Below, piece by piece: positions 8,036 through 47,304 of a stretch of 64,000 nt of DNA (within the stretch, counting starts at the first letter, position 1; each line of letters starts with the position of its first letter). The stretch is from Amycolatopsis tolypomycina. Lineage in GTDB: Bacteria; Actinomycetota; Actinomycetes; Mycobacteriales; Pseudonocardiaceae. Under the pieces are notes generated by a model. It made no database searches. It was not told where the DNA came from and worked only from the letters and a program-made list of their open reading frames with translations. Where the stretch lies: positions 1,860,001-1,924,000 of the forward strand of contig NZ_FNSO01000004.1 in assembly GCF_900105945.1 (NCBI RefSeq), given 5' to 3'. Position numbers and translations under genes: made by a program.

Positions 8036-8641
8036 TCAGGCGGCGAGCTGCGCGGCGGCCAGCACGTGCGGGGCCAGGCCGTCGGCGATCACGGCGTAAC
8101 CGGCCGAGGAGGGGTGGAAGCGGTCGGCCGAGAACAGCGCGGGGTCGGCGGCGAAGCGGGCGGCGAGTTCCGGACCGGCCGTGGCCACCGCACCCCCGGC
8201 CCGGATGGCGGCTTCGGCCTGGGCCTGCGCGTAGTGGCCGCTGGCCGCCGAGACCAGCTGCCGGTACGGGCCGGGCACCCGCGCCACGATCCCCAGGTCG
8301 GGTGCCGGTACCACGATGACGCGGGCGCCGGCACGGACCAGCCGCGTCACGGCGTCGTGCAGCTGGCGGGCGCCGATCGCGGGGGCGACGAAGCCGGCGA
8401 GGTCGTTCGCGCCGATCACGATCAGGGCCAGGTCGACGCCCTCGCCGAGAGCGAGGCCCGCCTGGCGGTCGAGGTCGGCCGAGCGGGCGCCGGGGACGCC
8501 GAAGTTCCGCAGGCGCACGACGTGGCCGGCGTCGCGCAGCCGCCGGGTGAGCCGCCGGCCGAGCGTGTCGTCCTCGCGGCTGCTGCCGACGCCGGCCGCG
8601 AGGGAGTCGCCGAGGACGCAGAAACGGAGTGGTGGGGTCAT
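8036..8641 (-). CDS. SGNH/GDSL-type hydrolase
   Basis: 201 aa. The SGNH blocks are clear: GDSLAAGVG (block I with catalytic Ser), the NFGVPGARSADL glycine block II, VIGANDL (block III Asn), and DRFHPSSAGY (block V Asp-His). These enzymes hydrolyse esters of lipids or acetylated carbohydrates. No signal peptide, so probably cytosolic. Start ATG 8641 is preceded directly by an alternative GTG; ribosome site is weak. It is divergent from the membrane-anchored hydrolase with only 51 bp between them, so the two share a promoter region. Confidence 0.9.
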   Translation of the reverse strand: MTPPLRFCVLGDSLAAGVGSSREDDTLGRRLTRRLRDAGHVVRLRNFGVPGARSADLDRQAGLALGEGVDLALIVIGANDLAGFVAPAIGARQLHDAVTRLVRAGARVIVVPAPDLGIVARVPGPYRQLVSAASGHYAQAQAEAAIRAGGAVATAGPELAARFAADPALFSADRFHPSSAGYAVIADGLAPHVLAAAQLAA

Positions 8642-8692
8642 CACGGGGTACAACGTGAGCGGGACGCCGTTGTTTCCCCGTGGAGGTCGCGT

Positions 8693-9508
8693 GTGACCAG
8701 GACCGTGCTCGTGCGGGTGCTGCTGGTGGCCCTCGTGGTCGTGGTGCTGCTGCCGGCCGCCTTCTGGGCGCTCCAGCGGCGGCTGATCTACCTCCCGGAC
8801 CCCGGCCCGGTGCCCGCGGCCGCGAGCGTGCTCCCGGGTGCCGAAGACGTCCGCCTCCGCACCGCCGACGGCCTCGAACTCGGCGCCTGGTACCTGCGCC
8901 CGGCCGGCCGGGATCCGGCGGCGACGGTGCTGGTCGCGGGCGGCAACGGCGGCAACCGCGCGGGCCGGGCGCCGCTGGCCGCGAAGCTCGTCCAGGCGGG
9001 GCTGGCCGTGCTGCTGCTCGACTACCGCGGCTACGGCGGCAATCCGGGCGACCCGAGCGAGGACGGCCTGGCCCTCGACGTCCGCGCCGCGCACCGCTAC
9101 CTGACCGAAGACCGGCGCGTGCCGCCCGGACGGCTCGTCTACTTCGGTGAAAGCCTCGGCTCCGCCGTCGTGACGGAGCTGGCCCTCGAACACCCGCCGG
9201 CCGGGCTGCTGCTGCGGTCCCCGTTCGTGGACCTGGCGGCCGTCGGCGCGGAGATCTACCCGTACCTGCCGGTCCGCCTGCTGCTGCGCGACCGCTTCCC
9301 GGTCAAGGAGCAGGCGGCGCGCCTGCGCCTCCCGGCGGTGGTGGTCGTGGGCGGCCGGGACTCGATCGTCCCGCCTGCCCAGAGCCGCGAGGTGGCGGCC
9401 GCGGCGTCGGCCCGGCTGGTGGAGATCCCGGACGCCGACCACAACGACAGGGTGCTGCTCGACGGCCCGGAGCTGGTCGAGGCGGTGGTGTCGCTGGTGC
9501 CGCGCTGA
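8693..9508 (+). CDS. Membrane-anchored alpha/beta hydrolase (BEM46/ABHD13-like)
   Basis: 271 aa from GTG 8693, with GGAGG six bases upstream. Residues about 4-27 are a single membrane anchor (VRVLLVALVVVVLLPAAFWA), followed by RRLIYLPDPGPVP, a signature of the BEM46/ABHD13-type subfamily. The catalytic region has LLLDYRGYGGNPG, the nucleophile elbow FGESLGSAV, the acid strand VVGGRDSIVP and the terminal DADHND histidine. Likely a surface-facing esterase or thioesterase of unknown substrate. Confidence 0.85.
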   Translation: MTRTVLVRVLLVALVVVVLLPAAFWALQRRLIYLPDPGPVPAAASVLPGAEDVRLRTADGLELGAWYLRPAGRDPAATVLVAGGNGGNRAGRAPLAAKLVQAGLAVLLLDYRGYGGNPGDPSEDGLALDVRAAHRYLTEDRRVPPGRLVYFGESLGSAVVTELALEHPPAGLLLRSPFVDLAAVGAEIYPYLPVRLLLRDRFPVKEQAARLRLPAVVVVGGRDSIVPPAQSREVAAAASARLVEIPDADHNDRVLLDGPELVEAVVSLVPR

Positions 9509-9577
9509 ACCTGGTCCTGGCGGACCCAGGCAGGACCGGGCCTGGTCCGGTCCGCCGGGCCGCCGCAGGCTCGGGGC

Positions 9578-10540
9578 ATGACGAACACCATGCAGGCGGT
9601 CACCATCCCCGAGTTCGGCCCGGCCGAGGTCCTGCGGCTCGACACCGTGGCGGTCCCGGAGCCCGGCCCGGGCGAGGTCTCGATCGACGTCGCCCACGCC
9701 GGCGCCAACTTCGCCGAGGTCCTGTACCGCCGGGGCGTCGTCGACGTCCCGCTGCCCTTCGTCCCCGGTATCGAGGTCTCCGGCCGGATCCGCGCGCTGG
9801 GCGGGGGCGTGACGGGCCTGGCCGTGGGGCAGCCGGTGGCCGCGTTGACGATCGTGGCGGGCGGCGGCTACGCCGAGGTCGTCACCACGTCGGCGGACCT
9901 GGTCGCGCCACTGCCGGAGATCGGGCTGGAGGTGGCGGCCGCGGTGCCGTCCAACAGCACCACGGCGTTCCTCGTGCTGGCGCGGGTGGCCCGGCTCGCC
10001 CCCGGTGAGCGCGTGCTCGTGCACGCCGCGGCGGGCGGGGCCGGCAGCCAGCTCGGGCAGGTCGCCCGCCTGCTCGGCGCGGGCCGGGTGGTCGGCACGG
10101 TCGGCAGCGCGGCGAAGATCGCCGTGGCGAAGTCCTTCGGCTACGACGAGGTCGTCCTGCGCGACGAGGTCGCCGGCACCGGCGAGTTCGACGTCGTGGT
10201 GGACATGGTCGGCGGGCCGTCGCGCCGCGCGAGCCTGGACCGGCTGGCCCCGATGGGCCGCCTGGTGGTCATGGGCAACGCCTCAGGCGCCGAGGACGTC
10301 GGCCTCCCGGCCAACGAACTGTGGTTCACCAACCGGACCGTGTCGGGGTTCAACCTGGCCGCGCTGTCCGCGGTGGCACCGGAAACCGTCGGGCAGGCGC
10401 TGCGCCGTGCGGTGGCGGCCGTCGCGGACGGCACCCTGCGCGTCGACGTCGAGTCCCTGCCGCTGGCGGACGCGGAGTCGGCACACCGCCGCATCGAGTC
10501 CGGGTCGACGACCGGCAAGCTCGTGCTCCGGGTGCGGTGA
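9578..10540 (+). CDS. Zinc-independent quinone oxidoreductase / MDR family
   Basis: 320 aa, the usual length for quinone oxidoreductases. N-terminal GroES-like domain (VPEPGPGEVSIDVAHAGANF) and FVPGIEVSGRI; a Rossmann domain with VHAAAGGAGSQLGQVARLLG (the AAGGVG-type NADPH motif) and VVGTVGSAAK. The structural and catalytic zinc cysteines are absent. It would reduce quinones or enones with NADPH. Substrate unknown. Confidence 0.88.
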   Translation: MTNTMQAVTIPEFGPAEVLRLDTVAVPEPGPGEVSIDVAHAGANFAEVLYRRGVVDVPLPFVPGIEVSGRIRALGGGVTGLAVGQPVAALTIVAGGGYAEVVTTSADLVAPLPEIGLEVAAAVPSNSTTAFLVLARVARLAPGERVLVHAAAGGAGSQLGQVARLLGAGRVVGTVGSAAKIAVAKSFGYDEVVLRDEVAGTGEFDVVVDMVGGPSRRASLDRLAPMGRLVVMGNASGAEDVGLPANELWFTNRTVSGFNLAALSAVAPETVGQALRRAVAAVADGTLRVDVESLPLADAESAHRRIESGSTTGKLVLRVR

Positions 10541-34686: not shown

Positions 34687-34860
34687 CACAGACGATACGG
34701 CTCGGAGCCGGTATTTCGCTGCCAACGTACGCAGATTCCCGCCGCCGCGCCCGGTCCGGCCCGGTTTGCCGAGGAAGCCGCGACCGGGCGGGGGCGCCGG
34801 TGGCCAACGTCACACGGTGCCGCCGTCGCCAGCCGGCCGGTGAGCCCGCCGCCGGTTCGC

Positions 34861-37800
34861 TCAGAGGGAGCCGGACTCGTCGGCGAGCAGGGCACCGGGA
34901 TCGGGCTCGTACCAGCAACGCGACCCGGCGGCCGCCAACCGGGCCAGCGGGTGCGAACGCCCGAGCTCCCGGCTCAGTGCGGCTCCGGCGTCCGCTTCAG
35001 CCGGCTCCGGCCCTTCGGCGAGGGCAAGGTTCCACCGGGCGACCAACGTGGCGGTGTGCCGCTCACCCTGGGCCCGGGCCGCGATCCGGGCCGTCCGGCG
35101 GTCCAGCTTCACCGCGGCGTCGGGTTGGCCGGTCTCGTGGAGATCAGTGGCGAAGTTGATCGCGCACGCGAGGGTGATCCGGTGTCCTTCCCCGAGCAGC
35201 GCCGTCGCCCGGCCGACGAGGGTGCGGTCGAGCTCGAGCGCCACCCGGGCTTCGCCGCCGAGGCGCCGGGTCAGGGCCAGCTCGCCCAACGCGGCCAATG
35301 TCGCGGGGTGCCCGTCACCGCATTTCCGGCGCAGGCGGGCCACGACTTCTTCCTGGAGCACCCCGATTTCGGCGGCGAGCGGGCGGCCCGCGAGCGCCGC
35401 GGCCAAGCGGGCGGTCGCCGCGAACCCGGCGATGACCGCGATGTCGTCCGTGGCCGGTGCGTGGCCCCCGAGCGCCTCGAACGCCGCTTCGACTTCGCCG
35501 GTCTCCCGCAGGGAGCGCGCCAGGGACACAGCCGGGCCGTAACGCCGGTGCAGCCGGACGGCGCGGGCGCGGTCGCCCCGCAGCCGGCAGGCCACTCCGA
35601 GCTCGGCGGCGAGCTGAGCGAACTGCGGCGTGCCGGCGGCTTCACCCTCCCAGGCACGCAGTGCCGACTCGGCCACCTCGACCGCCGCGGCCAGGTACCC
35701 GAGATCGAGGAGCCGCCTCGTCAGCGCGACGACACCGAGTCGCACGCCCGGATCGGCGCAGTCCACCATGCCCGAGCGCTTCAGGTGCGAAACCACTTCC
35801 CCGGGCGCCAGCGCCGAAGTGTCCTGCGCCAGGACGCGGTGAACGGCGTGCCGTGCCGAGTCCGACGCCGTTGCCCCCAAGCGAGCCAGCACCTCCGCCC
35901 GGACCGGCTCGGGAACGACCAGGACGCCCCGGTCCGGCACCAGCAACCCGCTTTCGAGCAGGGCTGTTCGCGCCTCCTCGGCCTCCGTGGCGACGGTGCC
36001 GCCGGCGACCGGGTCCGGTCCGGAACCCGACAGCCGGTCGAGAAAATACGCGGCCACCCCGCGCGGACCCAGCACGGCGCAGACGTCGAGGAGCGGCCGG
36101 CCGGCGGCGACGTCGTCGAGCGCGTGTCGGAACGGTCCCTCGTCCAGTACCTCCCGGGTGAACCAGCCCGCGGAGAACCGGCGTCGTGGCGCGCGGTGCG
36201 CGAGGTAGGTGACGGTGGCGGCGAGGCCGCCGTGCAGCTCGGCGAGCGACTCGCACTCGGCGTCGTCCAGTGCGGGGGCGCGCCTCAGCAGCAGTTCGCG
36301 GCTCTGCGCGGCCGACAGCCTGCCGACGGGCACCGGGATTCCGTGGTCCCGCCAGGCCGGCTCCCGTGAGGTCACGACGACGTGTGCCGGCCCCGCGGGA
36401 AGGTAGGGCAGCACGTCAGCGGGATCGACCGCGCCGTCGAGCACCAGCAGCCACCGCACCGCACGGGCGCCGGCGAACGCGTCCAGCACGGTGGCCGCGA
36501 CGGCGTCGGCGGCCGCTCCGGGGTGCTGCAGCCCGAGATCGATGGCGATGCGGCCGTAGTCGGTGACGATGTCGGCCGCCTCGCCCGCCCGGACCCACCA
36601 AACCGAGTCGTAGTCGTCGGCGTGCCGCGCGAGGTATTCGCGGACCAGCTCGGTCTTGCCGCTGCCGCCCTCCCCGAGCACCACCACGGGACGGCCGCCC
36701 CCGCCGGTGAGCGACGATCGCACGGCCGCCAGTTCGGCCCGGTCGACGAAGCCCCGGGCGTTGGCCTGCGGGCTCACCGACAACATGGCCGTCGACTCCG
36801 ATGTCACCGACGGAGCCGCACGCTCCAGCTGCTCCAGGCTCGAAGAGGAGTCCGCGCCGGCCGTCAGGCGGCGCGCCCGGGAGAGGTAGGGACCCGACAG
36901 CGCCCGCATTACGGCGCGCTCGACCCGGATGTCGGCAGGATCGCTGGGCAACGACGGCCCGAACGGGTCGGCGACCGCGGCCAGCAGGCGGGCCAGCACC
37001 GGCTTCGCGGCACCGAAGGTCGTGGCCACCTCCCGGATGACGCCCACGGTATCGGTGCGCCGCAACCCGCCGAGGAGTTCCGCCCGCACCCCGGGCAGGA
37101 AGTCGAAACCCTCGCCCGGTTCGCCGTCCCCGTCGGTCAGGAGTCCGCCGTGGAGCACCTCGGCCAGGTGGAAGAGCGCCGACCTCGGGACCATTTCCTG
37201 CTGCACGAACCGCATCACCGCCAGATCGATCGGCACGGCGGACAGCAGTGCGGCGAGGCGGAAGGCGGCCGGGGACGCGGTCAGGTGGAACGCGCGCACC
37301 CGTTCGCGCGCGGAGAGCTCGGCGGGCAGGTCGTCCGGCGCCTCGGCGGACCGGCCGAGAACGGTGACCGGCAGGGTGACCTCGGCCGGGCCCGTTGCCG
37401 TGAGCAGGCCCGCCCAGCGCGCCAGCCAGCCGCCGGACATCTCGAGCACCGGAACCGGGAGCCCCTCGCGGCGGGGTGCCCAGGGCTCGGCGTGGACGTC
37501 GAAGCGCAGCCGCCGGTTGGGTGCGCCGGGTTCGCCGGTCGACAGGTTCGCCAGTTCCGTGGTCAGGTTTCCCAGGCGCCACAGGCGATGCGGGAGGTGG
37601 TGGACCACGGCGAGCGGGTTGTCCTCCCCGAGCGCGGTCAGCCATGACGGGACGGTGTCCGGCCGCCACGCCCGGCCCACGCCGTCGGTCAGCACGAGGA
37701 CGATGCGCCGTCCGGTGGGATCGGCGAGCTCCCGCAGCGGGCGCCGGTCCGGGCGGCCGGCGACGCGGTAGGTCTCGGGGACGTCCTGGTCGGTGTCGAG

Positions 37801-38373
37801 CTGGACGGTCCGGACGTCGCGGAACGCGCCCTGGCGTTCGAGCAGGTGGACGAAGTCGGCCGCGGTCGCTCGCCAGAGCGCGGTCGAGCGGCCGGTGTCG
37901 CACACGACGACGACGTCGAACCGCCGGGTGGCCGCAGGCCGGGTCACCGGCAGCCACAACCCGGTTTCGGCCGCGGTCGTCGCCACGCGGACCTCGTCGA
38001 GCTCCTTGTCCCGGCGGGACGGGACGCGCCGGGACAACGGCCGCAGTGCTCGTTCGATCGCCCGCGGGTTCGTCAGCTGCGAGCCGAAATCCCGGTCGCC
38101 ACCGGCCCTGCCCGGCCCGGACACGGCCGGATCGGGCGACGGCGCCACCCCGGCTGTGTCCGAGATCGGCTCGGGCTCCTCGAACGCCTGACGTGGGCTC
38201 GGCGGCTCCCCGACCGGCTCCGGTGCGCGCGTCCGGTCCAAGGGAGGTTCTTCCGGGTGGCCAGGCCTTCCCGACTGCTGCAGCACGTTGACGAGCCAGA
38301 GCATGTCCGCGACCTCTTGCCAGGACAGCTCGCCCGCCGGTATCCGGGTCGGCGTGTCGTCCGGCTCGCTCAT
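34861..38373 (-). CDS. vWA-like (SAV_2336-type), STAND NTPase and TPR protein of a MoxR conflict cassette
   Basis: 1170 aa. Residues 14-33 (ELSWQEVADMLWLVNVLQQS) match the start of SAV_2336-type proteins; 55-95 is Pro/Asp-rich. About 150-340 is a vWA-like domain, with D159-x-G-x-S163 (CDTGRS) where the MIDAS DxSxS lies and VLTDGVG at 228-233. A STAND/NB-ARC ATPase has P-loop GEGGSGKT at 567-574, Walker B WLLVLDG and the VVTSRE sensor. About 850-1150 holds TPR-like repeats. It forms a three-gene set with the MoxR ATPase, 16 bp away, and the HTH-VMAP gene. Probable sensor or regulator of the cassette. Confidence 0.8.
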   Translation of the reverse strand: MSEPDDTPTRIPAGELSWQEVADMLWLVNVLQQSGRPGHPEEPPLDRTRAPEPVGEPPSPRQAFEEPEPISDTAGVAPSPDPAVSGPGRAGGDRDFGSQLTNPRAIERALRPLSRRVPSRRDKELDEVRVATTAAETGLWLPVTRPAATRRFDVVVVCDTGRSTALWRATAADFVHLLERQGAFRDVRTVQLDTDQDVPETYRVAGRPDRRPLRELADPTGRRIVLVLTDGVGRAWRPDTVPSWLTALGEDNPLAVVHHLPHRLWRLGNLTTELANLSTGEPGAPNRRLRFDVHAEPWAPRREGLPVPVLEMSGGWLARWAGLLTATGPAEVTLPVTVLGRSAEAPDDLPAELSARERVRAFHLTASPAAFRLAALLSAVPIDLAVMRFVQQEMVPRSALFHLAEVLHGGLLTDGDGEPGEGFDFLPGVRAELLGGLRRTDTVGVIREVATTFGAAKPVLARLLAAVADPFGPSLPSDPADIRVERAVMRALSGPYLSRARRLTAGADSSSSLEQLERAAPSVTSESTAMLSVSPQANARGFVDRAELAAVRSSLTGGGGRPVVVLGEGGSGKTELVREYLARHADDYDSVWWVRAGEAADIVTDYGRIAIDLGLQHPGAAADAVAATVLDAFAGARAVRWLLVLDGAVDPADVLPYLPAGPAHVVVTSREPAWRDHGIPVPVGRLSAAQSRELLLRRAPALDDAECESLAELHGGLAATVTYLAHRAPRRRFSAGWFTREVLDEGPFRHALDDVAAGRPLLDVCAVLGPRGVAAYFLDRLSGSGPDPVAGGTVATEAEEARTALLESGLLVPDRGVLVVPEPVRAEVLARLGATASDSARHAVHRVLAQDTSALAPGEVVSHLKRSGMVDCADPGVRLGVVALTRRLLDLGYLAAAVEVAESALRAWEGEAAGTPQFAQLAAELGVACRLRGDRARAVRLHRRYGPAVSLARSLRETGEVEAAFEALGGHAPATDDIAVIAGFAATARLAAALAGRPLAAEIGVLQEEVVARLRRKCGDGHPATLAALGELALTRRLGGEARVALELDRTLVGRATALLGEGHRITLACAINFATDLHETGQPDAAVKLDRRTARIAARAQGERHTATLVARWNLALAEGPEPAEADAGAALSRELGRSHPLARLAAAGSRCWYEPDPGALLADESGSL

Positions 38374-38389
38374 AGCGTGTACTCCCCAG

Positions 38390-39448
38390 TCAGTCGACGG
38401 GCGCCGACAGCTGCCGCCACAGCGCGTCGACCAGCCGCGGCCACGACTCGTCGTGCGCGTCGTAGTTCCCGGATGTCACCAGGTAGAGGGCGTTCAGCAG
38501 CTGGTCGACCGGCAACCCGGGCTCCGCCGCGGCGGACCGTTCGGCGAAGGCTTCGATCAGCTCGGCGGCCGCGGTCCCGACCCCTCGCGGCAGATGTGCG
38601 GCGACGATGCCTGCCAGCTGCTCCACGTCCGGGTTCGGCAGGTCCAGCCGGATGCAGCGCCGGAGGAACGCGGGCGGGAACTGGCGTTCGCCGTTGCTCG
38701 TGATCACGATGATCGGGAAGGCGCGGCAGCGCACGACGCCGGAGCGGACCACCGCCGACTCGCCCAGGTCGTGGGTGAACACCCGGACTTCCGGCGTCCT
38801 GCTCGCCAACCGGGCCAGCTCCGGGATGAAGTACTCGCCTTCTTCCAGCACGGCCAGCAGATCGTTGGGCAGGTCGATGTCGCTCTTGTCGAGTTCGTCG
38901 ATCAGCAGGACCCGCGGTTTCTCGTAGGCCAGCAGCGCGGTGCCGAGCGGCCCGAGCCGCACGAAGTCGCCGACATCGGCGGCCGAGGCCGGGTTCCCGT
39001 CCCGGACGGCAGCCAGCGCACTGGCCGCCTGGACACGGCCGATCGCGTCGTACTCGTACAGGCCGTTCCCGAGCGAGCTCCGGGTGGAAATCGGCCAGTA
39101 CAGGACCGGGCCGAGCCGCAGCTCCTGTGCGATCCGGTAGGCGAGCGACGACTTCCCCGTTCCCGGCGCGCCCGTGACCAGCAGCGGGCGGCGGAGGCAG
39201 ATGGCCGCGTTGATCAGCTCGACCTGCTGCGGATCGGAGCGCATCGGCACCGGGCCGGGCCGGCCGAGCCGCCGGGCGAAGCCGGCGTCCTTCGCCGGCG
39301 GCACCGGCAGTACTGGTTCTCCGTCGAAGGCCCGCCACGGCGGGGGTGGTGGGAGCAGTTCGGCGATGTCCTCCGTACGCTGCTCTCCCGTTCCGCGGTA
39401 GATCCACCACGGGGGCACCGGGGAAGCGGCTTCCTGGCCAGAACTCAT
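38390..39448 (-). CDS. MoxR-family AAA+ ATPase
   Basis: 352 aa. Walker A TGAPGTGKSS at 92-101, Walker B VLLIDELDKSDIDLPND at 180-196 (with the Asp-Lys extension typical of MoxR), sensor 1 ITSNGE and the LRRCIRLDLPNP arginine region. The N-terminal 60 residues are Pro-rich. MoxR ATPases act as chaperones loading metals or remodelling vWA partners. Its ATG overlaps the stop of the HTH-VMAP gene (ATGA), and it precedes the vWA protein by 16 bp, so the three are co-expressed. Confidence 0.93.
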   Translation of the reverse strand: MSSGQEAASPVPPWWIYRGTGEQRTEDIAELLPPPPPWRAFDGEPVLPVPPAKDAGFARRLGRPGPVPMRSDPQQVELINAAICLRRPLLVTGAPGTGKSSLAYRIAQELRLGPVLYWPISTRSSLGNGLYEYDAIGRVQAASALAAVRDGNPASAADVGDFVRLGPLGTALLAYEKPRVLLIDELDKSDIDLPNDLLAVLEEGEYFIPELARLASRTPEVRVFTHDLGESAVVRSGVVRCRAFPIIVITSNGERQFPPAFLRRCIRLDLPNPDVEQLAGIVAAHLPRGVGTAAAELIEAFAERSAAAEPGLPVDQLLNALYLVTSGNYDAHDESWPRLVDALWRQLSAPVD

Positions 39449-41139
39449 GACCGACCTTCCTTCGAGTGTTGGCGCACACCGACCGGCCCGGACGGCTCGA
39501 CGAGCCGGCCCGGGTCATCCCACAACAAAGTCACATGACTGCCGACGTGTGTTTCAGGGTCGTCGGCACCGAACGCCGCGCCCCGGAGCAACCGCACGCT
39601 CTCCGGCAGGTTCCCGCCGGTTTTGAGCAGGGACGGGACGATCTCCCGGAATTCGGCGGAGAACCGCCGGTCGCGCAGCCACAGCATCGCCGGGACGCCG
39701 GCCCGCAGCCCGACGGCCACTTCGTCCCCGGCGATGCTTGCCGCTTCCACCAGCGGGTGAGCCAGCACCAGCAGCACCGGGTCGCTCGTGGCCAGCACCG
39801 CGTCGAGGCGCCGCACGTCGGCCTGGTCGCGGGCATCGGTCCACCGGACCTGGTCGTCCGCGAGGGAGCCGACCTGGGCCAGGCTTTCCCACCGGCGGCG
39901 CCAGGAGCGGTGCCAGTGAGGCGAGCGCATGCGGTCCAGGCTGCGCACGACGACCTGGTGCCGCAGGCCCAGCGGCTGCGGCGACTCGCCGGGGAGTTCG
40001 CCCGGCCACTGGTCGATCGGCAGGCCGAGCAGCGCCCGCGGCAGCAGGAACTCCACCCGGATGGCCGCCGTGTCGGCGGCCCAGCCCGCTTCCGCCTGCC
40101 GGACCAGCCCGGCGACCTGCTCCCGCACCTCGGCCAGTCCGCCTTCGAATTCCTCGCCCGCCCGCAGCCCATCGGAGCCGAGCTGGGTCCAGGAGCGCGC
40201 CTGGAGCCGATCGGGCGCCACGAAGTCCGGCTCGAGCCGGATGACCAGGTACGCGCTCGCGGGTGCCGCGGCGCCCGCCTGCTCGGTCACCGCGGGCACC
40301 GGCACCTGGAGCCGGGCAGCCAGATCGCGGTTCCACTGCCGCAACCCGTCCGCGAGGCGGGGTTCGGCCTGGGCGGCCAGCCGTTCGACGAACACCAGTG
40401 CGGGCGGGATTCCGCTGGGCGGCGCGTTCAACCGCTCCAGTTCTTCGAAGTACCCGCGGGGCCCGGCCGGCGGCTCGTCCGGCTCGGGAGCGTACGGACC
40501 GGCCGCGGCGCGGTAGTCCTCCTCCAGCCGCACCCACCGCCCGGCGGCGAACAGCCGGAACAGCTGCGCCCGCTCGTCCGACGGCAGCAGCCCGATCGGG
40601 CTCAGTTCCGCCGCTGCCGTCCGGACGCTCTCCACCCCGCTCGGATCCGGCTCGAGCTCCTCCAGCACGTCCAGCAGAGCCTGGATCCCGTAGGGGTGGC
40701 GCTCGCAGGCGACCACCAGCGCGTAGAGGTGCAACCGGAACGAGGGCTGCTCGGGCACTTCGAACTCCGCGCCGAGCTGCCGCCGGAGCAGATCGATCGC
40801 CAGCGCCCGGGCCGACGGAGCGCGCAGGACTTCGGTGCGCGCCAAGGCGTCGACCAGCGGAGCGAGCGAGCCCGCCGCCGCGGGCGGGCGCTGATTCTCG
40901 TCACCCGGGGCCAGCAGCTCGGCCGGCGTGACTTCCAGCGCTTTCGCGAGCGCGGCGATCTCGTCGGCCGTCACCGTCTTCCGGACACCGGATTCGATCT
41001 TCGCGATGGTGCCGCGGGTGAGCGCCGGCTGGCCGGCGTCGGCGCAGGCTCTCGCCAAGCGATCGGCCGACCACCCGCGCTCCCGCCGAAGGCGGCGAAC
41101 GTGGGCGGCAACCAGCCGCGCGATCGGCTCAGGCCCCAT
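39445..41139 (-). CDS. XRE HTH, EAD2 and VMAP-C-like protein (first gene of the cassette)
   Basis: 564 aa from ATG 41139 with GGGAGG upstream; a longer frame begins at 41211. Residues 5-75 are an XRE helix-turn-helix (VAAHVRRLRRERGWSADRLA, TRGTIAKIES). Residues 92-170 fit the effector-associated domain EAD2 (PLVDALARTEVLRAPSARAL, ACERHPYGIQALLDVLEEL). Residues about 305-560 match the VMAP C-terminal pattern: AYLVIRLEPDF, FLLPRALLGLPIDQWP and HQVVVRSLDRM. VMAP proteins accompany MoxR and vWA genes in proposed NTP-dependent conflict systems. The HTH suggests it also controls its own operon. Confidence 0.75.
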   Translation of the reverse strand: MGPEPIARLVAAHVRRLRRERGWSADRLARACADAGQPALTRGTIAKIESGVRKTVTADEIAALAKALEVTPAELLAPGDENQRPPAAAGSLAPLVDALARTEVLRAPSARALAIDLLRRQLGAEFEVPEQPSFRLHLYALVVACERHPYGIQALLDVLEELEPDPSGVESVRTAAAELSPIGLLPSDERAQLFRLFAAGRWVRLEEDYRAAAGPYAPEPDEPPAGPRGYFEELERLNAPPSGIPPALVFVERLAAQAEPRLADGLRQWNRDLAARLQVPVPAVTEQAGAAAPASAYLVIRLEPDFVAPDRLQARSWTQLGSDGLRAGEEFEGGLAEVREQVAGLVRQAEAGWAADTAAIRVEFLLPRALLGLPIDQWPGELPGESPQPLGLRHQVVVRSLDRMRSPHWHRSWRRRWESLAQVGSLADDQVRWTDARDQADVRRLDAVLATSDPVLLVLAHPLVEAASIAGDEVAVGLRAGVPAMLWLRDRRFSAEFREIVPSLLKTGGNLPESVRLLRGAAFGADDPETHVGSHVTLLWDDPGRLVEPSGPVGVRQHSKEGRS

Positions 41140-41160
41140 CGAGCCTCCCGGGTCACTGTT

Positions 41161-41210
41161 CGGAGCAACTCTATCAGTTTTCTTCCAAATCGGAGCATAA
41201 TGACGGAGCA
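41161..41210. promoter_or_regulatory. Divergent promoter region with three CGGAGCA repeats
   Basis: The AT-rich spacer between the HTH-VMAP gene and the small membrane gene contains CGGAGCA at 41161, 41191 and 41204, and a CATAAT at 41196-41201 that could be the -10 for the plus-strand gene. The repeats are candidate sites for the XRE protein. Confidence 0.45.
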
Positions 41211-41252
41211 ACGCAGGTCCGATGAGTCTTCGACAGACGCAGGGGGTAGGCG

Positions 41253-41549
41253 ATGCCTACCAGGCCACCACCGCCCGACAACTTCCTCGCTCTCGTCGCG
41301 GCCATCATTCGCGACCGCAAACAGACGATGAACGTGGCGTTCCTGGTGGTCTGCATCGCGTTTGCGGCGGCCGTCGTCCTCGCTCCGGCACTGGTGATCA
41401 TGCTGCAGTTCGGACCCACCGGCGCGGCCGCTGTCGGGGGTGTCGGCGCGCTGGCCACCGCCGGCGCCGCGGCCCGCCGGGCCCGGCGGCGATCGAGCAG
41501 GCAACCGGTGGAGCCGCCCGGGCCGGCAGGAGAGATCGACCGTCCCTGA
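41253..41549 (+). CDS. Small two-helix membrane protein beside the conflict cassette
   Basis: 98 aa from ATG 41253 with AGGGGGTAGG upstream. Two hydrophobic segments (VAFLVVCIAFAAAVVLAPAL and AAAVGGVGALATAGAAA) are followed by an Arg-rich, Pro-rich tail (RRARRRSSRQ). No family is recognised. It is divergent from the HTH-VMAP gene with a shared 113-bp promoter region. Small membrane proteins often act as effectors in conflict systems, but no direct evidence links it here. Confidence 0.6.
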   Translation: MPTRPPPPDNFLALVAAIIRDRKQTMNVAFLVVCIAFAAAVVLAPALVIMLQFGPTGAAAVGGVGALATAGAAARRARRRSSRQPVEPPGPAGEIDRP

Positions 41550-41614
41550 CCACTGCCATCACGGCTCGGCCCGGCTTGCGGTCGCCGGATTCCACACCGG
41601 CGTCACCGCCGTCG

Positions 41615-42748
41615 TCAGCCGGACTGGGCGAGCGGCATCGACCGGTACTTGTCCAGGACCGCGGGGTCCTGCAGCGACATCCACTTCGTGACTTCCGCGT
41701 AGGTGGCGCAGACCGTCTCGGGCTTGGTGCACACCTCGCCCATGAAGCCTTCCGCGGCGCGGGAGAACGCCCCGCCGGCCCAGTCGTTGAAGTGGTTGCC
41801 GATGACGAGTGGCGCCCGGTTGCCGTCGAAGGCGGCCCGGTAGGCGCCGCGGTAGGTGTCGAGGGTGGCCTGGGTGTACCGCCCGGCGTCGTTCTTGCTG
41901 TGGCCGAGCTGGTACCAGAGGTTGTAGTCCATCATGATGACCTTCTTGTGCAGCGCGGGCACCTGCACGTAGGGCATCCAGAACTCCCAGATCCCGTCCA
42001 GCTTCGTGGGCCACTTGACGCCGTCGGAGGGCTGGCTGGAGTCGAAGGTGTAGCCGGCGGCGCGCATGGCGGGGAAGGCCTGCGCCCAGTTGCCTTCGAG
42101 GCACGGCGTCCGGCCGCCGGTGACGTCCGTGGCGGACAGGTGCAGCCCCAGGTGGTCGCGGGCGTCGTCGACGAAGCGGCTGAACTGCCCGATCTCGTCG
42201 GTCCAGCCCGCCGTGGTCCACCGCCCGACCCCCGGCTCGGCCCCGGCGCAGAAGTGCCCGTTGTAGTGCGTGCCGATCTGGTGCCCCGCGGCGACGGCCG
42301 TGTTGAGGTCCTGGACGCGGGTGGCGACTTCCGCGGCACTGCCCCCGAAGCCGATCGAGGCCGCGCCCGGCTTGTGCCCGGGCCCGGTGTAGCGCGACCG
42401 CTGCTCGTCGGTCAGCAGGTAGATGCCGGAGAGGAACCCGCTGAAGTGCGCGTGGACCGACTGGGCGAGCGAGAGGTAACGGCTCCAGTGTTCGTGCGAG
42501 CCGGCCCCGTCGAAGGAGAAGAGCACGAACTGCGGCGGCTTTTCGCCCGGCCGCAGCGGACGCATCCAGTCCGGGTCCTTGACCGGCACGGGGGCCGTGG
42601 TGGAGGCCGAGGGCGGAGGCGATCCGGCGGCCGCCGTGCCGGGCCGCGCGTTGCCGCGGCCGAGGGCGGCGATCAGGACGCCGGCCAGCACGAGGGCGAG
42701 GGCGACGGTGAGCCAGGTCCCCGGCCGCCGTGTCCATCGAGCACTCAT
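41615..42748 (-). CDS. Membrane-anchored polysaccharide deacetylase-like protein
   Basis: 377 aa from ATG 42748 (GGGGGAGG upstream; GTG 42754 is too close to it). Residues about 10-32 are an N-terminal anchor (TWLTVALALVLAGVLIAALG), followed by a Pro/Ser-rich linker. The NodB-type domain begins VLFSFDGAGSHEHW, with the aspartate of motif 1, and has IGTHYNGHF (motif 2 HxxxH) and DYNLWYQLGHSKNDA. Related deacetylases act on peptidoglycan or chitin-type polymers; this divergent version may act on a cell-surface glycan. Monocistronic. Confidence 0.8.
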   Translation of the reverse strand: MSARWTRRPGTWLTVALALVLAGVLIAALGRGNARPGTAAAGSPPPSASTTAPVPVKDPDWMRPLRPGEKPPQFVLFSFDGAGSHEHWSRYLSLAQSVHAHFSGFLSGIYLLTDEQRSRYTGPGHKPGAASIGFGGSAAEVATRVQDLNTAVAAGHQIGTHYNGHFCAGAEPGVGRWTTAGWTDEIGQFSRFVDDARDHLGLHLSATDVTGGRTPCLEGNWAQAFPAMRAAGYTFDSSQPSDGVKWPTKLDGIWEFWMPYVQVPALHKKVIMMDYNLWYQLGHSKNDAGRYTQATLDTYRGAYRAAFDGNRAPLVIGNHFNDWAGGAFSRAAEGFMGEVCTKPETVCATYAEVTKWMSLQDPAVLDKYRSMPLAQSG

Positions 42749-42949
42749 CGTCACGCCTCCCCCTGCTACGGACCGTCACAAGGAGGACGTCGAAGGGGGG
42801 ACCCGGGGTGGGTCGGGGTGAGATGCGTGACCCAAAAGCAACCCGGCTGGGAACGGAGAGTTACCGGGGGAGGACCGGTCGTGCGAGCGCTGCGTCAGCG
42901 CCGGGCGATCAGGGCACGGGTGGGCCGGCCAGGCGAGTGCGGCGGGCGT

Positions 42950-43405
42950 GCCGGGTTCGCCTGGCTGCGGGCGTTCGCGGCTCACCCTTGCCGCCGTCGA
43001 CCCTGGCCACGACGCGAGCGCGCACCGCAGCGCACCGGCTCGTTCGGCGGGTTCGGCCGGCTGCCGGGCCGAGCCGGCCGGCGTTCGGAACCGGTGGACG
43101 TCGATGCAGTCCGGGTCGACTTCGGTCAGATAGCCGTTGTCCTGGGCGAGCAGCCGGATTCCGTCGCTGCCGGCGCCGTCCGGATCGAGCGTGGCGCGAA
43201 GCCGGGAGCCGGCGCGCGCCTTCGGCGGGGCGTCGCCGTCCCACAACGGGTCCAGCAGGCGCTCCACCCGCACCAGCCGGCCGGCTTTCCGGCAGCAGCA
43301 ACCCGGGCAGGCACCGCTCCCGGCGGCGGCCCAGGTCGACCGGGACGCCACCGCGGTCCGCTTCGACGGTACCCGGAATTCCCCTTGCACCCGGCACTTC
43401 CCGCC
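42950..43405 (-). pseudogene. Decayed SARP/AfsR-type regulator gene
   Basis: The minus strand carries SARP-like segments in two frames: GTVEADRGGVPVDLGRRRER-like start in one, then GRLVRVERLLDPLWDGDAPP, IRLLAQDNGYLTEVDPDCID and PAERAGALRCALASW in another. This order is the N-terminal winged helix and start of BTAD of a SARP protein, with at least one frameshift. The rest is missing. Remaining sequence of this 813-bp interval (42749-43561) holds no other gene. Confidence 0.65.
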
Positions 43406-43561
43406 ACCCCGCACCGCCTGGCCGAGACGTCAAGGCTGGTGATCCGGCAGCGGCAAGGGGAACGGCAAGGTGGCGGGCCGAGCTTGTGGCTGTCGGCCGG
43501 AAAACTTCGTCATCGCTCCGGATCGCACCGTCTTGCACGTCTGGCCGGGCAGCGCCCCGAT

Positions 43562-44008
43562 TCACTCCTTGCACGGTCCGAAATAGCGGCACTCGATCAG
43601 GGCCCGCGGGTCCAGGGCTTGCGCTCGCGGCTCCCAGCTCTCGAGCAGCGGGGCGATCCCCGCCAGGTCGACGGTTCCGTCGGCGGTGAACGGGAAGAAG
43701 CGCTCGGTGGTGTCGTGCTCGGCGCAGCCGCTGCCCTGCAGGTTGCCCGCGGGGACCACGGTGAACACCTCTTTGCCGTCTTCGCCGAACGTGAAGTAGG
43801 CCTGCAGCCGCACCGGTGTCGTGTCGCCGACGTCGTTGATCTTGGTGCCGCCGTAGCTGGCGGGGTAGCGCCAGCCGGCCCGGGGATCGTTGGCGAACCA
43901 GGTTTCGCCGGGTTCGCGGGCGCCGTCGAGGGTCCAGCCCCGCGCGGTGAGGAACTCGTGGACGCGGAGCTGGCGTTCGAGCGCCTGGTCGGTCGGCGGC
44001 GTGGTCAT
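43562..44008 (-). CDS. Conserved actinobacterial hypothetical protein
   Basis: 148 aa from ATG 44008 (GAAGGG upstream). Not recognised. The sequence is soluble and acidic, with a GWTLDGAREPGETWFANDPR segment, two Cys near the C-terminus (ECRYFGPCKE) and one central Cys (GSGCAEHDTTERF). No signal peptide. The preceding SARP remnant lies downstream. No domain can be assigned. Confidence 0.6.
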   Translation of the reverse strand: MTTPPTDQALERQLRVHEFLTARGWTLDGAREPGETWFANDPRAGWRYPASYGGTKINDVGDTTPVRLQAYFTFGEDGKEVFTVVPAGNLQGSGCAEHDTTERFFPFTADGTVDLAGIAPLLESWEPRAQALDPRALIECRYFGPCKE

Positions 44009-44104
44009 CGTGCATCCCTTCGGACGAGGCGGACTACCCAAGTCAGTGTCGCGCTTGGGCGACTTTCACGACCGGGTGACCTGCGTCCGTGCGCCGTGAC
44101 GGGG

Positions 44105-46096
44105 CTAGACGATGCCGGCCGCGATCAGCTGCTGCCAGATCTCGCCCTGGTCGACGACCTCGACGCCGTGCTTCTCGGCCTTGGTCAGCTTGCTCGCCCC
44201 GACGTCCGCGCCGGTGATGAGCAGGTCCGTGTTCGCCGACACCGACGTCGCCGTGGTGGCGCCCGCCTTCTCGCACAGGCGCTGGAACGTCGGGCGCGGC
44301 ACCTTCTCGCCGGACCGCGGGTCGCTGATCGAGCCGGTGACCACCACCGTCTTGCCCGCCAGCGGCGCGCCCGCCGCGACCACCGGCGGGAGGTCCTCCT
44401 CACGGACGTCCAGCGAGACGCCCGCCGCGCGCAGGCGCTCGAGCTCGGGGCGCAGCCGCGTGAGGTGCTCGATCAGCGAGGCGGCGACCTTCGGGCCGAT
44501 GTCCTCCACGGCCACGAGCCCTTCGACGCCCGCCGCCACGACATCCTCCAGCGAGCCGAACCCGGCCCGGCACAGGCGGGCGGCGGTGCCTTCGGACGCC
44601 ATCGGGATCGCCAGCCCGATCAGCGCCCGGCGCAGGCCGACCGCGCGGCTCGCGTCGATCGACTCGATCATCCGCGTGGCCGAGACCTCGCCGATGCGGT
44701 CGAACTCGAGCAGCTTTTCCTTCGTCAGCCCGTAGAAGTCCGACGGGTGCTCCAGGATCCCGGCCTCGGCCAGCCGCTCGATCCACACGCCGCCGATGGC
44801 GTCGATGTCCGCCGCCGCCCGCGACGCCCAGTGGATCAGCCGCCGCACTGTCTGCGCCGGGCAGGACACGTTGGTGCAGAACAGTTCCCGGCTGTTGCCC
44901 TGCTCGGTCAGCGGCTGCCCGCACGACGGGCACTCGCTCGGCGGCACGATCTCCCGCTCGGCGCCCGTGCGCTTCGACTCGTCGAGCACGCCCGCGACGA
45001 ACGGGATCACGTCACCGGCGCGGCGCACCAGCACGGTGTCGCCGATCCTGATGCCGCGGGCGCGGATCACCTCCTGGTTGGCCAGCGTCGCGCGGGTGAC
45101 CGTGGTGCCGCCGACGAACACCGGTTCGAGCCAGGCGACCGGGGCGATCTTGCCGGTCTTGCCGACGTCCCAGACCACATCGGACAGTACGGTGGTCTTC
45201 TCCTCGGCCGCGAACTTGAACGCCAGCGCGCCGCGCGGCGAGCTCGACCGGGTGCCGGCCGCCGCGTAGGCGTCGCGGCTCGCCAGCCGCAGCACCGCGC
45301 CGTCGAGGTCGTAGTCGAGGTCGTTGCGCTGCCGCTCGATCTCGCCGATCACCTCCTGCGCCGCCGCGGCGTCGGCGCAGCGCCGCATGTCTGCCGCGGT
45401 GAAGCCGAGCGTGTGCAGCGCGCTGCCGAGGTCGGTCTCCGCGCTGTCGGGCTCGGTGTGCAGGTCGAAGGCGAAGAACCGCAGCCGCCGCTCGGCGACC
45501 GTGGCCGGGTCCTTGGCGCGCAGCGTGCCCGCGGCCGCGTTGCGCGGGTTGATCAGCGGCTTGTCCGGGTGGGCCGTGTTGTAGGCGGCGAAGGTGGACC
45601 GCAGCATCACGGCCTCGCCGCGGACCTCGACACGGCCCGGCGCGTCGACCCGCTCGGGGATCCCGTCGGTCAGGGCCCGCACGAGCACGGTGACGTCGTC
45701 ACCCGTCGTGCCGTCGCCGCGGGTGACCGCCCTGGCCAGCCGCCCGTTTTCGTAGACCACGGCCAGCGACAGGCCGTCGAGCTTCGGCATGACGACCACC
45801 GGCTGGCCGGGGAAGCGGTCGAAGAACGCCTCGACCTGCTCGGGTTTGGTCGCCTTTTCCAGCGACAGCATCGGGCGCGAGTGCCGGATCGGCGCGTGCA
45901 GCACCGCGGGCGCGCCGACCTGGTCGAGCGGGTTCGGGTCGGGCGTGTGCTCCGGGTGCGCCTCGATCAGGCTCCGCAGCTCGTCTTCGACAGCGTCGTA
46001 CTCCGCGTCGGCCACCAGCGGCGAGCCCCGGTAGTAGGCGTCGCGCAGCACCATGACGCGGTCGGCGAGTTCCTGGATGCGTTCCTGAGCGTTCAC
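44105..46096 (-). CDS. ligA: NAD-dependent DNA ligase, divergent LigA-type
   Basis: 663 aa from GTG 46096; a TAACGT hexamer seven bases upstream suggests a leaderless start. Domain Ia (AYYRGSPLVADAEYDAVEDE), catalytic lysine in MPKLDGLSLAVVYENG (KxDG), ALINPRNAAAGTLRAKD, OB fold, four-cysteine zinc finger (CPSCGQPL...CTNVSC), HhH region and a C-terminal BRCT (LAGKTVVVTGSISD). It seals DNA nicks using NAD+. The divergent Ia and active-site surroundings (MPKLDG not EPKIDG) suggest an accessory LigA copy with the housekeeping gene elsewhere. Confidence 0.9.
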   Translation of the reverse strand: MNAQERIQELADRVMVLRDAYYRGSPLVADAEYDAVEDELRSLIEAHPEHTPDPNPLDQVGAPAVLHAPIRHSRPMLSLEKATKPEQVEAFFDRFPGQPVVVMPKLDGLSLAVVYENGRLARAVTRGDGTTGDDVTVLVRALTDGIPERVDAPGRVEVRGEAVMLRSTFAAYNTAHPDKPLINPRNAAAGTLRAKDPATVAERRLRFFAFDLHTEPDSAETDLGSALHTLGFTAADMRRCADAAAAQEVIGEIERQRNDLDYDLDGAVLRLASRDAYAAAGTRSSSPRGALAFKFAAEEKTTVLSDVVWDVGKTGKIAPVAWLEPVFVGGTTVTRATLANQEVIRARGIRIGDTVLVRRAGDVIPFVAGVLDESKRTGAEREIVPPSECPSCGQPLTEQGNSRELFCTNVSCPAQTVRRLIHWASRAAADIDAIGGVWIERLAEAGILEHPSDFYGLTKEKLLEFDRIGEVSATRMIESIDASRAVGLRRALIGLAIPMASEGTAARLCRAGFGSLEDVVAAGVEGLVAVEDIGPKVAASLIEHLTRLRPELERLRAAGVSLDVREEDLPPVVAAGAPLAGKTVVVTGSISDPRSGEKVPRPTFQRLCEKAGATTATSVSANTDLLITGADVGASKLTKAEKHGVEVVDQGEIWQQLIAAGIV

Positions 46097-46184
46097 GGGG
46101 AGGACGTTACCGGGCACCACCGACACTGGGACATTCGACAGAAAACGGATTGCCGCCGGTCCCGCGGGTCGCCGACGATGGCAG

Positions 46185-46424
46185 GCATGGGGAGCCGACG
46201 AGCGCACCACGCCGGCCGAGTCCCTGCGCTGCCCGCGCCGCACGCTGGAGCTGAAGGGCGCCGGCCTCGACGCCACGGCCGAGGATCCCGCCAATCAGCA
46301 CGGCAGCGGCGGCGGATCGATGTCGGTGCGCGAAGTGGTGGTCGGGATGATCGAGGAATACGCCCGCCACCTGGGGCACGTCGACCTCCTGCGCGAACGG
46401 ATCGACGGCAGGCCCGGTCAGTGA
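46185..46424 (+). pseudogene. DUF664/DinB-type gene remnant with internal deletion
   Basis: The frame ending at TGA 46424 reads ADERTTPAESLRC and RTLELKGAGLDATAED, the start of DUF664-type DinB proteins, then jumps over the middle of the domain to EVVVGMIEEYARHLGHVDLL and RERIDGRPGQ, its end. The metal-binding middle is missing and no start codon lies in frame. It shares the 359-bp interval between ligA and the LLM gene. Confidence 0.7.
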
Positions 46425-46455
46425 GATCGCGTTCTGGAGTTCCTCCAGGTTTACG

Positions 46456-47304
46456 ATGAAGATCATGCGATTCGCCATCAAGACCTCGCCCCAGAACACC
46501 GAATGGGCCGACATGCTCGCCGTCTGGCAGGCCGCGGACGAAATCGAACTGTTCGAGTCCGGCTGGACCTTCGACCACTTCTACCCCATTTTCTCCGATT
46601 CGACCGGCCCCTGCCTGGAAGGCTGGGTGACGCTGACGGCGCTCGCGCAGGCGACCAAGCGGCTGCGGCTGGGCACGCTGGTCAGCGGCATCCACTACCG
46701 GCACCCCGCGCTGCTGGCGAACATGGCCGCCACGCTCGACATCGTCTCCGGCGGACGGCTGGAGATCGGCGTCGGCGCCGGCTGGAACGAAGAGGAATCC
46801 GGCGCGTACGGCATGGAACTGGGCACGGTCAAGGAGCGCAGCGACCGGTTCGAGGAAGCCTGCGAAGTCCTCGTCGGGCTGCTGACGCAGGAGACCACCA
46901 CGTTCCAGGGCGAGCACTACCAGCTGACGGACGCCCGCTGCGAGCCCAAGGGCGTGCAGCGGCCGCACCCGCCGATCTGCATCGGCGGCAGCGGTGAGAA
47001 GCGCACCCTGCGCACCACCGCGAAGTACGCCCAGCACTGGAACTTCGTCGGCGGCCCGCCCGAGGAGTTCGCCCGCAAGCGTGACGTCCTGCACCGCCAC
47101 TGCGCGGACATCGGCCGCGACCCGGCCGAGATCACGCTGTCCTCGCACGTCCGCCTCGACCCGGACCTCGACTACGCGAAGGTCGCGGCCGAGGCGGCGG
47201 CGCTCGGGGAAGTGGGTCTCGACCTGGCGATTGTCTACCTGCCGCCGCCGCACACGCCGGCTGTGCTGGAGCCGCTGGCGAAGGCGCTCGAGCCGCTGCG
47301 CTGA
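46456..47304 (+). CDS. LLM class F420-dependent oxidoreductase
   Basis: 282 aa from ATG 46456 (ATG 46465 is an alternative). TIM-barrel luciferase-like fold: FAIKTSPQNTEWADML, FESGWTFDHFYPI, LRLGTLVSGIHYRHPALLAN (LxLG and cofactor-phosphate region), DIVSGGRLEIGVGAGWNEEE and PPICIGGSGEKRTLR. This pattern is that of F420-dependent LLM enzymes, which reduce or oxidise diverse metabolites. Likely cytosolic. Substrate unknown. Confidence 0.92.
   Translation: MKIMRFAIKTSPQNTEWADMLAVWQAADEIELFESGWTFDHFYPIFSDSTGPCLEGWVTLTALAQATKRLRLGTLVSGIHYRHPALLANMAATLDIVSGGRLEIGVGAGWNEEESGAYGMELGTVKERSDRFEEACEVLVGLLTQETTTFQGEHYQLTDARCEPKGVQRPHPPICIGGSGEKRTLRTTAKYAQHWNFVGGPPEEFARKRDVLHRHCADIGRDPAEITLSSHVRLDPDLDYAKVAAEAAALGEVGLDLAIVYLPPPHTPAVLEPLAKALEPLR

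What the first reader, a model, noticed from the sequence alone, without database searches (positions are those of the whole stretch)
34861..41549. Possible MoxR/vWA/VMAP conflict cassette with XRE control and a divergent membrane partner
Three overlapping or closely spaced genes encode an XRE HTH-EAD2-VMAP-C protein (39445-41139), a MoxR AAA+ ATPase (38390-39448) and a vWA-STAND-TPR protein (34861-38373). This is the triad described for NTP-dependent conflict systems by Aravind and colleagues. The HTH at the front of the VMAP protein, the EAD2 domain (normally shared with an effector) and the STAND domain on the vWA protein make this a compact variant. No classic toxin was seen; the divergent 98-aa membrane protein at 41253-41549 is the most visible candidate effector, but EAD2-bearing effectors elsewhere in the genome could be recruited.
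Basis: partly seen in the sequence, partly recalled or inferred. Interest (0 to 1): 0.8.

Follow-up and report, generated by a model that had tools for sequence, protein, structure and literature searches.

The report
Portable gene switch on immune cassette
A mobile bacterial immune gene cassette carries its own DNA-binding switch and a small membrane protein read from the opposite strand; related switches sit on several unrelated immune machines, which suggests a shared way of arming them.

Summary
The triad is real: a VMAP-type MoxR-vWA ternary conflict system (Kaur et al. 2020) in an Amycolatopsis-like genome (HTH-EAD2-VMAP-M0-VMAP-C; MoxR; vWA-STAND-TPR) in canonical gene order. Empty sites in three relatives show that the insert is the triad plus the divergent 98-aa membrane gene. 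In a fourth, the same site holds other genes, including an EACC1-caspase conflict pair.

What looks new is the front end. The XRE HTH belongs to a rare module also fused to NB-ARC-TPR, WD40, EAD1 and, more weakly, nSTAND, E2 and GTPase cores. Upstream of these genes lies a shared palindrome, TGYTCCR-N3-YGGARCA (12 of 16 loci; 0 of 347 control upstream regions), and in 9 of 16 a divergent small hydrophobic ORF (3 of 332 controls, one being a second fetch of a case locus). The HTH is most likely an autorepressor built into the immune core, controlling the operon and, I propose, the membrane protein (candidate effector).

VMAP-C is predicted to have a CHAT/separase-like fold without conserved His or Cys. 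Nothing is bench-tested, thresholds were partly set after seeing the data, and the window's own operator is weak. New variant of a known kind.

The parts
34839..41614 (.). Inserted cassette: triad plus divergent membrane gene. Left homology to empty sites ends at 34838; right homology resumes at 41593-41615 depending on the relative. Imperfect repeat CAGCCGG[C/A]C at both junctions (34830-34838 and 41616-41624).
   Evidence: tblastn and blastn against L090, L092 and L098, where the two flanking genes are neighbours
34861..38373 (-). vWA-STAND-TPR protein, 1170 aa: vWA about residues 147-327, STAND about 539-717, TPR toward the C-terminus
   Evidence: individual STAND and TPR Pfam matches are below cut-off
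38390..39448 (-). MoxR-type AAA+ ATPase, 352 aa, with the two N-terminal motifs of VMAP-type MoxR
39445..41139 (-). HTH-EAD2-VMAP-M0-VMAP-C protein, 564 aa; overlaps the MoxR gene by 4 nt
40897..41130 (-). XRE HTH module (residues 4-81)
40612..40854 (-). EAD2 (residues 96-176)
40300..40587 (-). VMAP-M0 (residues 185-280)
39511..40209 (-). VMAP-C (residues 311-543), predicted CHAT/separase-like fold
   Evidence: AF2 and re-ranked PDB matches
41181..41197 (-). Candidate operator TGCTCCGATTTGGAAGA, 11 of 14 on the strict palindrome, 13 of 14 on the widened one
   Evidence: alone it is not exceptional in the window (13 such sites, 9.9 expected)
41161..41168 (-). Half site TTGCTCCG
41204..41211 (-). 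Half site TTGCTCCG
41253..41549 (+). TM98: 98-aa hydrophobic small protein, divergent from the VMAP gene across a 113-bp gap

Best explanation
A mobile VMAP-type MoxR-vWA ternary immune system whose VMAP subunit carries an XRE DNA-binding head. In the resting cell the head binds TGCTCCG-type operators in the 113-bp gap before the divergent membrane gene and holds down its own operon and, I propose, TM98. Sensing of an invader by the vWA-STAND-TPR protein drives MoxR to remodel the VMAP, whose C-terminal domain looks like an inactive CHAT/separase fold. The head lets go; TM98 and more of the system are made, and TM98 acts on the membrane of the infected cell. Shown by computation: ternary membership, exact mobility of triad plus TM98, the HTH module on several cores, the shared palindrome, and the divergent-ORF association. 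Inferred: binding, repression, release on sensing, TM98 as effector. Part confidences: ternary membership 0.95; HTH as operator-bound autoregulator 0.8; TM98 a functional partner 0.7; TM98 the killing effector 0.4.
For: Domains and motifs. Empty sites bound the insert to triad plus TM98. TM98 relatives lie divergent beside the HTH genes of G072, G089 and G020. The palindrome was derived on nine loci and tested on seven others: 3 of 7 reach 12/14 or more, 4 of 7 reach 11/14, against 0 and 13 of 347 control upstream regions. Widened motif: 12 of 16 loci against 0 of 347. A TANNNT box lies 16-18 nt downstream of the palindrome in six loci, so it would cover a -35 region. Divergent small hydrophobic ORF: 9 of 16 against 3 of 332. 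XRE fold like SinR and CapH.
Against: No experiment. The window's own site is 11/14, a level reached by 13 of 347 controls, and 13 such sites occur in the window where 9.9 are expected; only the cluster of three of the window's 19 TGCTCCG within 51 bp is unusual. Seven of 16 HTH loci lack the divergent ORF and four lack a 13/14 site on the widened motif. TM98-like ORFs in six genus genomes have no HTH-module gene beside them. Thresholds and the widened motif were set after seeing the loci, and window and L040 are close relatives. Perfect palindromes are at chance level across 390 genomes (21 genomes; 18 for the reversed control by my count).
Confidence: 0.5

Rival explanations
1. Classical ternary system: EAD2 recruits a signalling enzyme, perhaps the cyclase-like EAD2 protein of the second system, and the STAND-TPR part of the vWA protein is the effector. 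The HTH only sets the level of the operon and TM98 is an accessory.
For: Kaur et al. assign effectors to the vWA C-terminus and adaptor roles to EADs. One EAD2 protein with a cyclase-like front exists in the genome.
Against: The cassette carries no signalling enzyme or adjacent second EAD2 gene of its own; TM98 moves with it and pairs with the HTH.
Confidence: 0.27
2. TM98 is not a toxin but a membrane anchor, sensor or antidote that works with the HTH-bearing protein.
For: Small and hydrophobic; found beside HTH genes with different cores. Nothing in its sequence says toxin.
Against: No positive evidence for binding. In five of the nine loci the small ORF shows no similarity to TM98 at E below 1e-5 by tblastn, which fits an exchangeable effector as well as an anchor.
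Confidence: 0.17
3. The HTH is a protein-protein adaptor, like an EAD, and does not bind DNA.
For: It sits at the N-terminus of many conflict cores, as EADs do.
Against: A palindromic site lies upstream of 12 of 16 of these genes and of 0 of 347 controls; the fold matches known DNA-binding repressors.
Confidence: 0.06

Closest known systems
[quoted passage not shown] 2020, PMC7159879)
   Same: VMAP-C, VMAP-M0, EAD2, MoxR motifs, vWA with C-terminal STAND-TPR, gene order VMAP-MoxR-vWA
   Different: The VMAP starts with an XRE HTH, which is not among the N-terminal classes in the text I read; the locus has an operator and a divergent membrane gene, and no second EAD2 gene or peptide-processing genes beside it
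FxSxx / SAV_2336 proteins of Actinobacteria (NCBIfam NF041121, NF040586)
   Same: The vWA protein has the SAV_2336 N-terminal domain and a STAND-TPR region related to the FxSxx-system TPR protein
   Different: Below the NF040586 cut-off; the genome's one mod_HExxH protein found is beside the second system
XRE repressors of immune operons such as CapH; CapK/CapS as shared regulators (PMC13373217, abstract and outline seen)
   Same: XRE fold like CapH; one type of regulator serving diverse immune systems
   Different: Here the regulator is part of the immune core polypeptide, not a separate gene
XRE-repressor toxin-antitoxin pairs (recalled, no call)
   Same: XRE head, palindrome in a divergent promoter, small membrane partner
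   Different: The repressor is a subunit of an ATP-driven sensor; toxicity of the partner is untested
CHAT/separase caspase-like peptidases (Craspase TPR-CHAT, separase)
   Different: No conserved His or Cys in 28 VMAP proteins; no sequence-level match

Membership tests
VMAP ternary system | VMAP-C domain | tested here: met
   PF20028 4e-47, 161.5 bits against cut-off 27
VMAP ternary system | MoxR with N-terminal WxhapG and PsWRxa motifs | tested here: met
   WWIYRG and PPWRAF read in the sequence against the motifs in the paper
VMAP ternary system | vWA domain with the two metal-binding aspartates | tested here: met
VMAP ternary system | N-terminal [D/E]xxx[D/E]xxxa motif of the vWA protein | tested here: inconclusive
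   By eye a related ExxDxxW lies there in the window; the spacing differs from the printed motif
VMAP ternary system | Gene order VMAP, MoxR, vWA | tested here: met
VMAP ternary system | Second copy of the EAD on an adjacent gene ('usually', Kaur) | tested here: not met
   No EAD2 beside the cassette; the two other EAD2 copies found are about 5 Mb away. The paper words this as usual, not required
RxD/acidic peptide-processing subtype | mod_HExxH protein beside a vWA-fused AP-ATPase | tested here: not met
   The only match in the genome lies beside the second system
XRE autorepressor (works like) | XRE-type HTH fold | tested here: met
   Pfam and structure
XRE autorepressor (works like) | Palindromic operator in its own upstream region | tested here: met
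   For the module: 12 of 16 loci against 0 of 347 controls. The window's own site is weak
XRE autorepressor (works like) | Measured DNA binding and repression | not testable with these tools
   Needs bench work
CHAT/separase peptidase | Fold | tested here: met
CHAT/separase peptidase | Catalytic His and Cys | tested here: not met
   No invariant or nearly invariant His or Cys in 28 rows; the sites were not superposed residue by residue

The most novel reading that the evidence does not exclude
Actinobacteria own a portable arming unit (an XRE head, its palindromic operator and a divergent small membrane gene) that is swapped onto unrelated immune cores: VMAP ternary systems, NB-ARC-TPR proteins, WD40 proteins, EAD1 proteins and perhaps nSTAND, E2 and GTPase cores. 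The activation step of each core doubles as derepression of a membrane effector, so one transcriptional output serves many sensors. The VMAP core itself works through an inactivated separase-like domain.
Probability: 0.38. Interest if true: 0.88.

Novelty: new variant of a known kind. Interest (0 to 1): 0.73.

Why it matters
Ternary conflict systems are predicted from sequence; in searches I met no experiment on a VMAP-type system. This variant offers a handle: an operator and a reporter. If the core protein is itself the repressor, activation by phage could be read as transcription from a divergent promoter, which would make the open question of what these systems sense directly testable. One type of switch on unrelated immune cores would be a new layer of modularity in bacterial immunity. 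A CHAT/separase-like fold for VMAP-C would place a domain that Kaur et al. could not unify with any known one.

Tried and rejected
EAD1 in the own genome: no match, and no control genome rang, so uninformative. Third VMAP-C hit (L003): below cut-off, 2 in-frame stops, not followed. HTH on plasmids: no match. HTH-alignment search over 394 class genomes: 6 genomes at E 1e-16, own included; the other five at 3e-20 to 5e-17 are not the module by score; 14 candidates per genome were scored, so sensitivity was low. Family search, 249 genomes: 7 matches, 3 of them the module by score. A wider regulon of the operator: not supported; perfect palindromes in 21 of 390 genomes against 18 for the reversed control (my count), and 2 of the 21 sit at HTH-module genes. 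Sigma-70 and terminator scan of 40900-41700: nothing. TTGCTCCG in the window: 3 copies, no more than shuffles give. Sequence profile of VMAP against the PDB: no CHAT or separase hit, so that relation rests on predicted structure. The plain Foldseek list for the vWA model is headed by HGPRT rows, best E 6e-3; vWA domains lead only after re-ranking. Tree of 37 HTH modules: starred branches force at least 3 changes between VMAP and other cores, but the AU test does not reject one VMAP clade (p 0.162), so repeated swapping is likely, not shown. The 1745-aa ORF at 41222-46459 runs antisense to better candidates and was disregarded. Absence from print was judged from searches (open-licence PMC only; one search listed 10 of 1,246) and from word searches in the Kaur main text (no 'operator', 'promoter' or 'xre'). 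Kaur's source data, which list 71 VMAP architectures, could not be read and may hold HTH fusions.
Full report

The genome. The window lies in a 10.36 Mb genome. The closest HTH-VMAP proteins are from Amycolatopsis (93% and 85% identity; A. kentuckyensis 87%), so I take it for an Amycolatopsis. It holds a second ternary system at C4:6.88-6.89 Mb: vWA-NB-ARC-TPR, MoxR, EAD2-M0-VMAP-C, an EAD2 protein with a cyclase-like front (by eye; no Pfam match besides EAD2 up to E 0.5), and the only mod_HExxH protein found in the genome. Kaur et al. [quoted passage not shown] The window system has the fused STAND but no such genes beside it.

Exact mobility. The flanking SDR gene and 379-aa gene are neighbours, about 200 nt apart, in G035, G072 and G089 (L092, L090, L098). 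BLAST of these empty sites puts the left break at 34838 and the right resumption at 41593-41615, with an imperfect CAGCCGG[C/A]C repeat at both ends. The insert is therefore the triad plus TM98. G072 and G089 carry the HTH-VMAP cassette, TM98 included, at other places. In G091 the site holds about 7 kb of other genes, among them an EACC1-associated caspase (NF047832, 2.2e-66) and an EACC1 protein (8.3e-29), the pair that Kaur calls System 4, beside transporter-like and regulator-like ORFs (by eye). The flank search covered 80 genus genomes; 11 had the 379-aa gene, own included, and regions were fetched for the other 10. In six of these ten (L091, L093, L094, L095, L096, L097) the SDR gene was not in the fetched stretch, so they say nothing about the site.

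The HTH is a shared module. A search with residues 1-90 gave 47 proteins; 18 carry VMAP-C by my count of the Pfam column, others carry EAD1, NB-ARC or AAA, TPR, RES or other domains, and many carry none besides HTH. A genome-contig scan, whose patterns fell on the HTH motif, gave 19 loci; ten actinobacterial ones (L040-L049) have HTH identity of 56-98%. Pfam on ten HTH proteins: NB-ARC above cut-off (with TPRs) in L043, L045, L048, L083 and L084; NA-iREase3 with WD40 in L044; EAD1 in L047; VMAP with two EAD2 in L080; below cut-off nSTAND5 in L046 and a ubiquitin-conjugating domain in L047; none in L049, where a second scan gave a weak DO-GTPase2 match. Within 80 Amycolatopsis genomes, own included, at least six have HTH-VMAP (G000, G072, G089, G032, G088, G098). 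In G032, G088 and G098 no MoxR or vWA relative (E 1e-6) lies in the 17-19 kb fetched, so HTH-VMAP proteins also occur apart from the triad; these genomes have other VMAP matches elsewhere. Kaur reports VMAP as not found outside these systems. The exact HTH motif occurs in 10 of 390 family genomes, so the module is rare; G032 shows that exact matching misses some.

The divergent membrane gene. In 9 of 16 HTH-module loci a divergent ORF of 80-150 codons with a strongly hydrophobic stretch starts 80-201 nt upstream. Among 332 control genes of the same loci it is 3, one of which (L082) is a second fetch of case locus L042. Thresholds were fixed, and window and L040 are close relatives, so the Fisher value (1e-11) is only indicative. 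TM98 has detectable relatives beside the HTH genes of G072, G089 and G020; the G020 gene is an NB-ARC-TPR core. In the other five loci the small ORF has no tblastn match to TM98 at E below 1e-5. TM98-like ORFs in G066, G013, G064, G016, G008 and G019 (E 5e-7 to 1e-3) have no HTH-module gene in the fetched stretch.

The operator. The gaps before these genes share TGCTCCG-N3-CGGAGCA or variants. Derived from nine loci, it was tested on the seven others: L049 14/14, L080 and L083 12/14, L081 11/14, L044 10/14 with three half sites, L045 9/14, L041 8/14. Of 347 control upstream regions none reaches 12 and 13 reach 11. With the motif widened to TGYTCCR-N3-YGGARCA after seeing all loci, 12 of 16 have at least 13/14, against 0 of 347 controls and 2 sites in 699 kb of other loci. 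In six loci a TANNNT box follows at 16-18 nt. In the window the site is 11/14 and is flanked by two TTGCTCCG half sites inside 51 bp; the 64 kb holds 19 TGCTCCG in all. By total counts the window shows no excess of either pattern. Perfect palindromes over 390 genomes are at control level, so a wider regulon is not supported.

How it may work. As the 2024 paper on hypermutated sensors tells it (PMC10907252, passages), Kaur et al. take VMAP as the invasion sensor that frees vWA-linked effectors, and its authors propose the reverse: the vWA component senses and the VMAP N-terminus is the output. The second view fits here, since the VMAP N-terminus is a DNA-binding head with a site of its own. Repressors that serve diverse immune operons are known (CapK/CapS, PMC13373217, abstract and outline). 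A repressor built into the core is the difference. Release on activation and a killing role for TM98 are inference.

Verdict. Observation confirmed; interpretation partly supported; new variant of a known kind, with a possibly general HTH-operator-membrane unit that deserves a bench test.

Noticed in passing
L089 (G091:C22), 8145-10206: The same chromosomal gap holds an EACC1-associated caspase and an EACC1 protein in another genome of the genus: a shared insertion site for different conflict systems.
   Followed up: partly
window 39511-40209: VMAP-C is predicted to have a CHAT/separase-like fold without conserved His or Cys.
   Followed up: partly
L080, L081, L042/L082: HTH-VMAP genes with no MoxR or vWA relative in the fetched stretch; all three have TGTTCC-type rather than TGCTCC-type palindromes, and by eye Ile or Leu where the other HTHs mostly have Val after RK[STY].
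   Followed up: no
L080 8670-11135: HTH-EAD2-VMAP protein with a second EAD2 stretch at its C-terminus.
   Followed up: no
L007 (own genome C4:6880500-6897500): Second ternary system with a cyclase-like EAD2 protein and the mod_HExxH protein; a phage-integrase gene lies about 4 kb beyond.
   Followed up: partly
L079 7427-9153 (G089): The HTH-VMAP gene is read in two frames in this assembly (residues 2-293 and 285-554); it may be broken or a sequencing error.
   Followed up: no
L041, P0006, P0011, P0013: HTH-VMAP proteins with a nucleotide-cyclase-like stretch (by eye) between HTH and VMAP parts, similar to the front of the second system's EAD2 protein.
   Followed up: no
G021:C104:19623-20111: A 206-aa frame matches query residues 5-168, that is HTH plus EAD2 without VMAP (37% identity): a possible stand-alone HTH-EAD2 protein.
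   Followed up: no
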